NCBI GenBank assembly: GCA_032622095.1
Contig: CP136067.1
Coordinates: 134,173,990-134,237,989, forward strand
DNA: 64,000 nt
Origin: Siphonodentalium dalli
Taxonomy: Eukaryota; Mollusca; Scaphopoda; Gadilida; Siphonodentaliidae
Reading direction: 5' to 3'
How positions within the stretch are numbered: position 1 is the stretch's first letter; every line of letters starts with the position of its first letter. The notes under the pieces were generated by a model. That model was given only the letters and a program-made list of their open reading frames with translations. It made no database searches and was not told the DNA's origin. The position numbers and the translations under genes were made by a program. This document shows positions 2,096 to 29,265 of the stretch, piece by piece.

Positions 2096-2338
2096 ATGTT
2101 TGAATCACGGATAATGTTTGCCTTGATTGTACTGGTGTTCTCACTCTATTCATCACGCGACCGCGGCTGTCATGGTATGGGACGAGAGTTACCACCTATC
2201 GGACCACCTTTACCACCACAGGGGCACGACAGGCCGGGAGGTAAAGCGAATTTATGTCGAAGGATTTGCTATAGATACTGCAAACCAAAGGAAGGTTTGA
2301 TGTGTAGTTTCAAATGTCGGGTACTCTGTCGGCGCTAG
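2096..2338 (+). CDS. Secreted six-cysteine cationic hairpin peptide precursor, paralogue 1
   Basis: 80 residues. Residues 1-27 look like a signal peptide: MFESRI, a hydrophobic core (FALIVLVFSLY), then SSRDRGCHG, where Cys at -3 and Gly at -1 suit signal peptidase after residue 27. Residues 28-49 are Pro/Gly-rich with no Cys. The C-terminal part has exactly six Cys in the symmetric pattern C-x3-C-x3-C-x7-C-x3-C-x3-C, with about ten Arg/Lys against one Glu, and ends in Arg-Arg. Inferred role: extracellular antimicrobial or host-defence peptide. Cys at i, i+4 and i+8 lie on one face of a beta strand, so a three-rung ladder is possible; a helical hairpin fits the spacing too. No intron is needed. 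The start is chosen because MF..RI is shared with the paralogue 0.5 kb downstream; an internal Met at 7 is the alternative. I do not recognise a named family. Confidence 0.72.
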   Translation: MFESRIMFALIVLVFSLYSSRDRGCHGMGRELPPIGPPLPPQGHDRPGGKANLCRRICYRYCKPKEGLMCSFKCRVLCRR

Positions 2339-2795
2339 TAGAGTTGGTCTGGGTTCTGGGCTAACGCAGCACGAAACCCGTAACAGTGTACTTAGTAAGA
2401 TTTGTGTCGACTCCCGCTTCGAAGGTTTATTTAGATAGATATACAAGATTGAACTAAACTGAATACATAACATGCAAGTAAAAGTAAAGATTTTGCTGAG
2501 CTTAATTGGAGCACTCGAAGTGTTAACGCCAGATTAATCAACCAAATTTCATCTTACACGGCGGCTAACATTTAAAAAGCGATATAGTTGCGCCGCGAAG
2601 CTGCGTCACACCGACTTCTAGGAATTGTGCTTGACTATAGACTGGATAGGAAGTGATCACTAGGTTTATGTGCACTTATATCACGAGACACAACAAATAC
2701 TCCACACACTAACACGTCGCATCTTCGTGGTGTGAATTAGTACTATTCCATGTGAAAAAAAGTCGTGTTTCAAAAAGTGAAGTAATAGCGACTAC
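2339..2795. other. Spacer between the two six-Cys peptide genes
   Basis: 3' UTR of the first gene and upstream region of the second. Both genes carry ACAGTGTAC within about 100 nt after their stop codons (near 2382-2390 and 3152-3160). This shared tag suggests that the duplicated unit extended past the stop. No canonical AATAAA is seen close to the first stop. Confidence 0.45.
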
Positions 2796-2797
2796 AT

Positions 2798-2804
2798 TAT
2801 ATCT
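2798..2804 (+). promoter_or_regulatory. Possible degenerate TATA box of six-Cys peptide gene 2
   Basis: TTATATC lies 68 bp before the ATG at 2866, about where the TATA-like box sits in the upstream paralogue. The match is weak. CTACAG at 2808-2813 could alternatively be a 3' splice site for an upstream non-coding exon. Confidence 0.25.
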
Positions 2805-2865
2805 CATCTACAGGAGTTATTTTCCATTAGTTAAACTGAACTATAGTTACTTGCCTCAAATAGCC

Positions 2866-3090
2866 ATGTTTGGACCACGGATTACATTTGTTCTGATAGT
2901 GCTGGTTTTCTCAATGGGTCCATCGCGAGACTGGGGATGTCATGCTATCGGACCAAAGAAACCGTTGTTACCACCCCGGCCCAGTCAAATGAATAAACAG
3001 ACTTTATGTCGGAGAATTTGCCAGATCTTCTGCGGACCCAATGCAAGGTTTAAGTGTGGTTTCAGATGCCGTATATTCTGTGGGCGCTAA
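2866..3090 (+). CDS. Secreted six-cysteine cationic hairpin peptide precursor, paralogue 2
   Basis: 74 residues, tandem paralogue of the gene at 2096. The signal region is closely conserved (18 of the first 27 residues by my alignment, including the hydrophobic core and SRD.GCH). It ends in CHA, a good signal peptidase site. A Pro/Lys-rich linker follows (IGPKKPLLPPRP). The core has the same C-x3-C-x3-C-x7-C-x3-C-x3-C spacing. Outside the cysteines the core has diverged; about 14 of the last 28 residues are identical, shared residues including LCRRIC and one Pro in the loop. Aromatic and Arg residues alternate. The C-terminus is Cys-Gly-Arg: removal of Arg would leave a Gly for C-terminal amidation, an option the first paralogue (Cys-Arg-Arg) lacks. 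The frame stays open back to 2752, but the start at 2866 is chosen from alignment with the paralogue and signal peptide position. Function inferred: secreted defence peptide. Confidence 0.72.
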   Translation: MFGPRITFVLIVLVFSMGPSRDWGCHAIGPKKPLLPPRPSQMNKQTLCRRICQIFCGPNARFKCGFRCRIFCGR

Positions 3091-12300: not shown

Positions 12301-12582
12301 ATGCGTGTCTTTGCTGTTTTGTGTTTGTTCGTAACCGTCCTGACTAACACCAGCGGGTTAGCGGTGTCACAAGGCGGACCAGATATATCTCAATCTAACG
12401 TTGATGTTCATAATCGCTGGTTGTTGAAACCGGTATCGGATAATCACATATTAGCTCCTCGGTGGCGTATATGTACCTTCGAGTGCGGTTGGCAAGATAG
12501 GCGTTGGATTTGTTGGTGGGTGTGTATAGCTGCTGGTGGACGGAAGAAAAGTGTGAGAAAATATGCGTTTTTTACTAAATAG
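12301..12582 (+). CDS. Secreted Trp/Arg-rich four-cysteine hairpin peptide precursor
   Basis: 93 residues. Residues 1-21 form a clear signal peptide (MRVFAVLCLFVTVLTNTSG.A). Residues about 22-54 are a neutral propiece without Cys. The core has Cys 58, 62, 71 and 75: C-x3-C-x8-C-x3-C, with five Trp between residues 54 and 75 and several Arg. Two C-x3-C arms around a turn are the layout of beta-hairpin antimicrobial peptides (tachyplesin has C-x3-C-x4-C-x3-C; alvinellacin has a longer turn). After the core comes Gly-Gly-Arg-Lys-Lys, which could be cut at the basic residues and amidated at Gly, then a short basic tail (ending at residue 93) rather than the acidic tail of tachyplesin precursors. 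No BRICHOS domain, unlike polychaete arenicin or alvinellacin precursors. The frame is open from 12226; the start at 12301 is chosen because the signal peptide begins there. Inferred: membrane-active extracellular defence peptide. Confidence 0.7.
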   Translation: MRVFAVLCLFVTVLTNTSGLAVSQGGPDISQSNVDVHNRWLLKPVSDNHILAPRWRICTFECGWQDRRWICWWVCIAAGGRKKSVRKYAFFTK

Positions 12583-28409: not shown

Positions 28410-29265
28410 CTAGAAAGTAGGACAGAATTTATAGATGATCCTGGACAAGCGATAAGGGTAGGCATTGGTGGCATCGTACATCATCCATATTTTGATCCCT
28501 CGTTTTATTGGTTTTGCCGGCATGTATTGCTTGTAGGAGAGACGTCCCGTCCATTTTATCATTCCTTCGTCGACAGATATATATTGCGAAGGCAAGTAAC
28601 ACGATTTCAATGTTGTTAGTGATGAGTCGATGATGTCGCGAACCTTATATAGTGGATCGTACGAATCTGTCCCTTTAGCAGGTTCGCTCTCTCGGTCACT
28701 GACGTGGAAGTATTCTGTGATTTTTTCAAATCTGCGCCGATTCATAACTTTGCTGATGCCGGCGTTTCCGATAAACTCATCATGTGACCAGTACTGCTTG
28801 TATGAGGGAAGGTCATTCACACTCATCGTGATGTTCATACCGATGTACGCACGAAGTTCTAGTTCCGAAATATCAGACCAGTATTTATCAGTCTCGCCCT
28901 TTTCTTCCATTTTCCATTTGGCATAGTTGTTAGTATGCCTGGCTATTTCGGCATACTTCGATGGCGAGAACATAAAATTGAAATATTCCAAAGCTGTTGC
29001 TGTATCAGTATCGAATTCATCTGGTATAACTGGCCCTGTCCTTTGGGTAAATGGCTGAAGTGATACCTTTCGAAGTTTATTTGACCAGCCAATCGGGTTA
29101 TTATTCAATGCTATCATCGATGGAGGTCACATTGTCGCTGGTAGCAGGGGCAGAGTAATCGTCGTCTGAATCGTCTGATGACGAGGAACCGCAATCTCCG
29201 CTAAAATCGCTATCATCTCCCATTAACATGTCGATCACTTGCTGTTTCGAAAATGTTGCAGCCAT
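28410..29265 (-). pseudogene. piggyBac-type transposase, frameshifted and truncated
   Basis: The frame from 29117 down to 28410 (235 codons) is recognisably a piggyBac/PGBD transposase (DDE_Tnp_1_7 type). It has FNFMFSPS, then ELRAYIGMNITMSVNDLPSY, SKVMNRRRFEKITEYFHVSD, and the block with the first catalytic Asp (ISVDEGMIKWTGR), with KQYMPAKPIKRGIKIW after it. An N-terminal acidic Ser/Asp-rich segment (start 29265, stop 29101-29103) lies in another frame overlapping the main frame by 17 bp, so a frameshift separates them. The main frame stops about 45 residues after the first Asp; the remaining catalytic Asp residues and the C-terminal Cys-rich domain are missing. It is therefore dead. No terminal inverted repeats were found for it. 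Confidence 0.85.

What the first reader, a model, noticed from the sequence alone, without database searches (positions are those of the whole stretch)
2096..3090. Tandem pair of secreted peptides with a symmetric six-Cys core
Seen: two paralogous precursors share C-x3-C-x3-C-x7-C-x3-C-x3-C exactly, although half of the other core residues differ. The signal peptide is more conserved than the mature part, as in fast-evolving defence peptides. Known: tachyplesin-type peptides have two C-x3-C arms joined by two disulfides on one face of a beta hairpin. Inference: this core would be an extended version with three rungs. I know of no named family with this pattern. A helical hairpin with i/i+4 disulfides is the main alternative.
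Basis: partly seen in the sequence, partly recalled or inferred. Interest (0 to 1): 0.8.

Follow-up and report, generated by a model that had tools for sequence, protein, structure and literature searches.

The report
Three-rung disulfide-ladder peptide gene family
Two neighbouring genes for small, probably secreted peptides with six evenly spaced cysteines belong to a large, apparently undescribed gene family in one invertebrate genome, probably antimicrobial hairpin peptides with one disulfide rung more than their best-known look-alikes.

Summary
Two intact ORFs (2096-2338, 2866-3090) share C-x3-C-x3-C-x7-C-x3-C-x3-C; 7.6e-5 such matches are expected per window. The same genome, probably lophotrochozoan, holds a multigene family: I read 24 open six-Cys cores with arms always 3-3/3-3 and inner loops of 4, 5, 7, 8 or 13 residues, four cores with W/W, W/W, W/Y or R/W in place of the third rung, and five two-rung cores, one at window 12301. 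Of these 33, 28 end in G plus a four-residue basic motif (amidation plus furin-type site). A profile built without the window pair scores W1 and W2 above all but 0 and 2 of 1000 Cys-fixed shuffles, though plain searches link them only weakly or not at all. Pfam, PDB and nine paper searches showed no such family. Nested 1-6/2-5/3-4 pairing is inferred from symmetry and paired change at rung 3. The fold is open: spacing and proline positions favour a beta hairpin, AlphaFold2 gave W1 a helical hairpin (pLDDT 74). Best reading: host-defence peptides working like tachyplesin/gomesin with one more rung; expression, pairing and activity untested.

The parts
2096..2338 (+). Precursor gene W1 (80 aa): hydrophobic N-terminal signal (by eye), proline-rich linker, six-Cys core, ends C-R-R-stop
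   Evidence: ORF; 53% identical to W2
2168..2170 (+). Seventh Cys (residue 25, motif GCH) of W1, outside the core
   Evidence: alignment A1
2255..2329 (+). W1 core, C-x3-C-x3-C-x7-C-x3-C-x3-C, net charge +6
2866..3090 (+). Precursor gene W2 (74 aa), tandem paralogue of W1, ends C-G-R-stop (amidation-like)
   Evidence: ORF, alignment
2938..2940 (+). Seventh Cys (residue 25, motif GCH) of W2
   Evidence: alignment A1
3007..3081 (+). W2 core, same Cys spacing, net charge +6
2680..2868 (+). Upstream stretch of W2, alignable with that of the degenerate third copy in L024 and in part with that of W1 (about 1920-2098); promoter role inferred only
   Evidence: DNA alignment A3
12301..12579 (+). Probable two-rung relative: signal, linker, then C-x3-C-x8-C-x3-C followed by I-A-A-G-G-R-K-K; core at 12472-12525
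   Evidence: paralogues on C7; profile score 14.1 bits, reached by 18 of 1000 shuffles

Best explanation
W1 and W2 encode secreted host-defence peptides of a large family in this genome. Each precursor is led into the secretory path by its signal. The six cysteines pair in a nested ladder (1-6, 2-5, 3-4), which staples two nine-residue arms into a hairpin with three rungs and an exposed loop. The arginine-rich, partly aromatic product would act like tachyplesin or gomesin on microbial membranes, and the third rung would add length and resistance to proteases. In most relatives the core is followed by G and a four-residue basic motif, so that it would be released by a furin-type protease and amidated; W2 keeps only C-G-R before its stop, W1 C-R-R. 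Shown: open genes, Cys pattern, the family, constraint on the core. Inferred: secretion, pairing, beta rather than alpha hairpin, processing, antimicrobial action.
For: Two open tandem ORFs with the exact pattern. 24 open six-Cys cores, arms always 3-3/3-3, loop 4, 5, 7, 8 or 13. In four relatives both cysteines of rung 3 are replaced together, by W/W, W/W, W/Y and R/W, as expected if positions 3 and 4 face each other. Profile of 22 rows without the window pair: W1 26.5 bits (0 of 1000 Cys-fixed shuffles reach it), W2 21.5 bits (2 of 1000); six other rows left out in turn beat 300 of 300 shuffles each. Cores have dN below dS in 12 of 12 overlapping pairs, and 64 of 64 Cys codons are kept as Cys. 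The inner spacing of the x4 members equals that of the gomesin-like DsGom printed in PMC11678162. Nine of 28 cores hold one proline in an arm, all at arm positions 2 or 6 counted from the first Cys as 0, which on a beta hairpin with Cys at non-hydrogen-bonded sites are non-hydrogen-bonded too (general knowledge). AlphaFold2 gave strands for the two-rung gene at 12301, best pLDDT 84.
Against: Plain protein search links W1 to C4 only at E 0.23 (reverse 0.105), and the search with W2 listed no C4 member and no six-Cys C7 relative beyond its own group at E up to 10. AlphaFold2 on W1 with two sequences gave two helices, best pLDDT 74, five models 61-74; five of its six PDB matches, E 5.2-9.8, are helical-hairpin peptides (labels partly recalled). 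Hydrophobic moments are undecided: arm 1 weakly helical, arm 2 weakly strand. Four six-Cys cores of C4 have net charge -1 to +1. W1 lacks the glycine needed for amidation. The strand model at 12301 had three strands, five models 52-84, and no specific structural match. The nine prolines stem from about four lineages. No transcript or activity data.
Confidence: 0.48

Rival explanations
1. W1 and W2 are alpha-helical hairpins with the same nested pairing (alpha-hairpinin- or turgencin-like), cysteines at i, i+4, i+8 lining one face of each helix.
For: AlphaFold2 model of W1: helices 8-20 and 23-38, pLDDT 74; Foldseek lists VBP-8, VBP-1, BWI-2c and Tk-hefu; arm 1 weakly favours helical periodicity; the C-x-P start of the loop would suit a helix N-terminus. 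Turgencins pair 1-6/2-5/3-4, are amidated and show some helical character (PMC7024374).
Against: Only two sequences in the alignment; structural matches E 5.2-9.8. Prolines inside arm 1 in six relatives, and four-residue inner loops in many, suit strands better.
Confidence: 0.33
2. The peptides are not antimicrobial but venom-, mucus- or signalling-type ligands: amidated, disulfide-stapled products of an expanded gene family.
For: Near-neutral cores in the C4 164.14-164.15 Mb group; amidation and furin-type motifs are common to neuropeptides and toxins too; large cluster expansion with varied loops.
Against: 16 of the 21 cores counted carry +2 or more, W1 and W2 +6; among Pfam toxin families only E 0.31 and 3.2.
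Confidence: 0.15
3. Not expressed: relics of an old family, or chance ORFs.
For: No transcripts available; a third W copy 38 kb upstream of the window is degenerate; the ORF of L059 has no start Met before its core.
Against: Two open tandem ORFs, core dN below dS, all Cys kept, dozens of open relatives.
Confidence: 0.04

Closest known systems
Tachyplesin / polyphemusin / gomesin (two-rung beta-hairpin AMPs of chelicerates)
   Same: C-x3-C arms, cationic, secreted, amidated end; inner C-x3-C-x4-C-x3-C spacing of many relatives here equals that of the gomesin-like DsGom
   Different: Third C-x3 on each side; window pair has a seven-residue loop, a stop right after the core, and no acidic C-terminal part; probably lophotrochozoan genome; no demonstrated homology
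Turgencins A and B (ascidian Synoicum turgens, PMC7024374)
   Same: Six Cys, nested 1-6/2-5/3-4 pairing, amidated
   Different: The printed partial sequence of turgencin A spaces its Cys 3-4-8-2-3, not 3-3-n-3-3; some helical character; ascidian
Theta-defensins
   Same: Three disulfides on a single beta hairpin
   Different: Cyclic, 18 residues, made from two nonapeptides, primates (PMC4410394)
BRICHOS-related annelid AMPs (capitellacin and others)
   Same: Lophotrochozoan beta-hairpin AMPs; capitellacin closest to tachyplesins
   Different: One or two disulfides and a BRICHOS domain in the precursor; none in W1/W2
Alpha-hairpinins (VBP, BWI-2c type)
   Same: C-x3-C...C-x3-C helical hairpin (recalled), listed by fold search with the W1 model
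   Different: Four Cys, mostly plants (recalled); weak match

Membership tests
Tachyplesin/gomesin family | Four Cys as C-x3-C-x4-C-x3-C | tested here: not met
   W1/W2 have six Cys and an x7 loop; L034 has the exact spacing
Tachyplesin/gomesin family | C-terminal amidation signal after the core | tested here: inconclusive
   W2 ends C-G-R, W1 ends C-R-R; 28 of 33 cores read have G plus a four-residue basic motif
Tachyplesin/gomesin family | Acidic C-terminal propeptide | tested here: not met
   W1 and W2 stop right after the core; for four C4 genes no shared downstream exon was found, so it is unknown there
Tachyplesin/gomesin family | Beta-hairpin fold | tested here: inconclusive
   AlphaFold2 helical for W1, strands for the 12301 gene
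Theta-defensin | Each precursor supplies nine residues that are joined into a cycle | tested here: not met
   both arms lie in one precursor, core of 25 residues; whether the product is cyclic cannot be seen from DNA
BRICHOS-related AMPs | BRICHOS domain in the precursor | tested here: not met
   precursors of 74 and 80 aa with no Pfam match at E 10
Turgencin | Six Cys with 1-6/2-5/3-4 pairing | not testable with these tools
   pairing only inferred; Cys spacing differs
Alpha-hairpinin | Helical hairpin with two C-x3-C motifs | tested here: inconclusive
   W1 model helical, best structural match E 5.2
Any Pfam family | Convincing match | tested here: not met
   0 families for W1/W2 at E 10; for the 24 short cores of A4 four stray families, best E 0.027

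The most novel reading that the evidence does not exclude
A new family of linear three-rung cystine-ladder beta hairpins (the only three-disulfide beta-hairpin AMPs named in the review passages read are the cyclic theta-defensins), in which the third rung is gained or lost by swapping a disulfide for an aromatic pair while the loop between the arms varies from 4 to 13 residues: a natural series in which evolution has tested rung number and loop length on one defence scaffold in one genome.
Probability: 0.4. Interest if true: 0.78.

Novelty: new variant of a known kind. Interest (0 to 1): 0.62.

Why it matters
A 2026 review counts 27 families of disulfide-closed beta-hairpin antimicrobial peptides (PMC13001179, abstract); in the parts read, those whose disulfide number is given have one or two, except hepcidins (four) and the cyclic theta-defensins (three). 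A family with dozens of members in one genome, with rungs and loops varied step by step, would let the role of each disulfide be tested on natural variants, and would supply very stable hairpin scaffolds. It would also show tachyplesin-like spacing in a probable lophotrochozoan without a BRICHOS domain in the precursor.

Tried and rejected
Chance ORFs: rejected. Known Pfam or PDB family: none convincing; the PDB sequence search leaves out chains under 20 residues, so mature tachyplesin and gomesin (17-18 residues) could not have been found there. BRICHOS precursor: W1 and W2 have no such domain; the genome search for BRICHOS found 0, but its control was silent. Hydrophobic moments: undecided. 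Shared second exon downstream of four C4 genes: none found by blastn, so the C-terminal part of those precursors is unknown. Paper searches for the family; no paper with this pattern was seen in their capped listings or in the passages read. Together nine paper searches were made.

Papers: PMC13001179 abstract, outline, sections 9 and 16 (part 1 of 2) and passages; its tables were not visible. PMC11678162, PMC7761999, PMC6780910, PMC7024374 and PMC4410394: passages only. All others: search listing only.

Full report
What is there. The window lies at G000:C7:134173990-134237989 of a 2.23-Gb, nine-contig genome. Two plus-strand ORFs, 2096-2338 (W1, 80 aa) and 2866-3090 (W2, 74 aa), begin with a hydrophobic signal (by eye), run through a proline-rich linker and end with a core of exact spacing C-x3-C-x3-C-x7-C-x3-C-x3-C. 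The pattern is found twice in the window; 7.6e-5 are expected from base composition, and 40 simulated windows gave none. A seventh Cys (GCH, residue 25) is conserved in both; its role is unknown. A third copy 38 kb upstream of the window (L024) aligns with both units but its frame is broken.

Family. Protein searches of the own genome with W1, W2 and then with the relatives found led to clusters on C4 (164.09-164.38 Mb and 239.16-239.24 Mb) and C7 (134.12-134.65 Mb, around the window), and to scattered places on C7. Of the 28 short regions cut out for these matches, 24 held an ORF with the motif (17 of 19, 7 of 9; L039, L044, L058 and L060 did not). With the window and the longer pieces L006, L007 and L025 this gives 24 open six-Cys cores (W1, W2, two in L025, L026-L033, L035, L036, L041-L043, L053-L057, L059, L061); L059 has no start Met before the core. 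Their arms are always 3-3 and 3-3; the inner loop has 4, 5, 7, 8 or 13 residues. Four relatives in L006 and L007 have only the two outer rungs; at rung 3 they have W/W, W/W, W/Y and R/W round a D-G-[NS]-[ST] loop of the same four-residue length. Five more (window 12301, L034, L037, L038, L040) have two rungs, with a G before the basic motif set three residues further on. In all, 28 of these 33 cores are followed by G and a four-residue basic motif; the others are W1, W2, L028, one gene in L006 and window 12301. The census is a lower bound, because the search scores only the best candidates, and matches above E 1 were cut out only in part.

Relation of the window pair to the family. Plain searches are weak: W1 meets C4 at E 0.23 (reverse 0.105), and W2 listed no family member outside its own group. 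A profile of 22 cores without W1 and W2 scores them at 26.5 and 21.5 bits; with Cys fixed and the other residues shuffled, 0 and 2 of 1000 controls reach those scores. The two-rung gene at 12301 is less clear (14.1 bits, 18 of 1000). Six other rows, left out in turn, beat all 300 controls each. The alignment behind this (A4) holds 24 rows: 20 of the 24 six-Cys cores (L054-L057 left out as near copies of L053) and the four rung-3 variants; the five two-rung genes were not in it. The last residues of W2, C-G-R, line up with the G-R of the relatives' G-R-K-K-R.

Constraint. In 12 paralogue pairs, which overlap, the core has dN below dS in all 12, in some only slightly, and 64 of 64 Cys codons stay Cys; linker dN exceeds dS in 4 of 12. 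The signal is more conserved than the core in 5 of 12 pairs, W1/W2 among them, and less in 7.

Processing. In 21 of 31 places with the basic motif the codons of the motif are followed at once by GT, in 19 of them GTAAGT, GTAAGC, GTATGC, GTGAGT or GTAAAT, which reads like a splice donor; the other 10 do not show it there. So many precursors probably go on in a further exon, which was not found for the four C4 genes tested. W1 and W2 instead stop after the core. This is inference from sequence.

Fold. Nested pairing follows from the mirror symmetry and from the joint loss of both rung-3 cysteines. Beta or alpha is open. For beta: gomesin-like spacing of the x4 members; all nine prolines in the arms of 28 cores at positions 2 or 6, about four independent events; AlphaFold2 strands for the 12301 peptide, pLDDT 84, although with three strands and no specific match. 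For alpha: AlphaFold2 on W1 with W2, two helices, pLDDT 74, with weak matches mostly to helical hairpins. Hydrophobic moments do not decide.

Function. W1 and W2 cores carry +6; across the 21 cores counted the charge runs from -1 to +8, with four near-neutral ones in the 164.14-164.15 Mb group. An antimicrobial role like that of tachyplesin or gomesin is the most likely for the cationic members; the neutral group may do something else.

Known relatives. Passages of two reviews of beta-hairpin antimicrobial peptides give theta-defensins as the three-disulfide case (PMC4410394; PMC13001179). Turgencins have the nested three-disulfide pairing and an amide, with other spacing (PMC7024374). Pfam and PDB gave nothing convincing. 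I therefore file it as a new variant of a known kind: it probably works like a tachyplesin-type hairpin, but is not a member of that family by the features tested.

Organism. A Lox5-like homeobox with the KLTGP peptide (L046) makes a lophotrochozoan likely; the marker is recalled. The species was not identified.

Noticed in passing
window 12301-12579 (+): A further small peptide gene, C-x3-C-x8-C-x3-C with G-G-R-K-K end; one search lists relatives on C7 at 134.117, 134.156 and 134.242 Mb, a split match at 134.271 Mb and one at 91.77 Mb whose ORF did not show the motif.
   Followed up: partly
window from about 32580 on: Most of the second half is a satellite-like array: 74 copies of a 300-nt segment, spaced 196 and about 710 or 905 nt (copies past about 51 kb counted but not listed), with lower G+C than the first half.
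   Followed up: no
window 28413-29126 (-): ORF matching DDE_Tnp_1_7 (piggyBac-type transposase by recall), E 1e-44.
   Followed up: no
L053-L057 (C7:134.469-134.535 Mb): Five relatives carry a 13-residue tip of the type S-G-x-[ST]-G-W-W-F-W-R-R-R-R between rungs 3 and 4; in the three pairs tested the core stays 87-97% identical while the linker falls to 8-45%.
   Followed up: partly
L042 and L043 (C7:7.06 and 7.11 Mb): Two very similar six-Cys genes about 55 kb apart, far from the main clusters, with a donor-like GTAAGC 15 nt after the basic motif.
   Followed up: no
L050 and L051 (C7:77673389 and 77720567): The same Hox-type homeobox ORF occurs twice 47 kb apart among homeobox matches at about 77.3-78.8 Mb: a recent duplication or an assembly duplicate.
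   Followed up: no
L003 about 1041-1460 and 2270-2700: Two inverted copies of a short repeat near a C4 peptide gene, perhaps a small transposable element (by eye).
   Followed up: no
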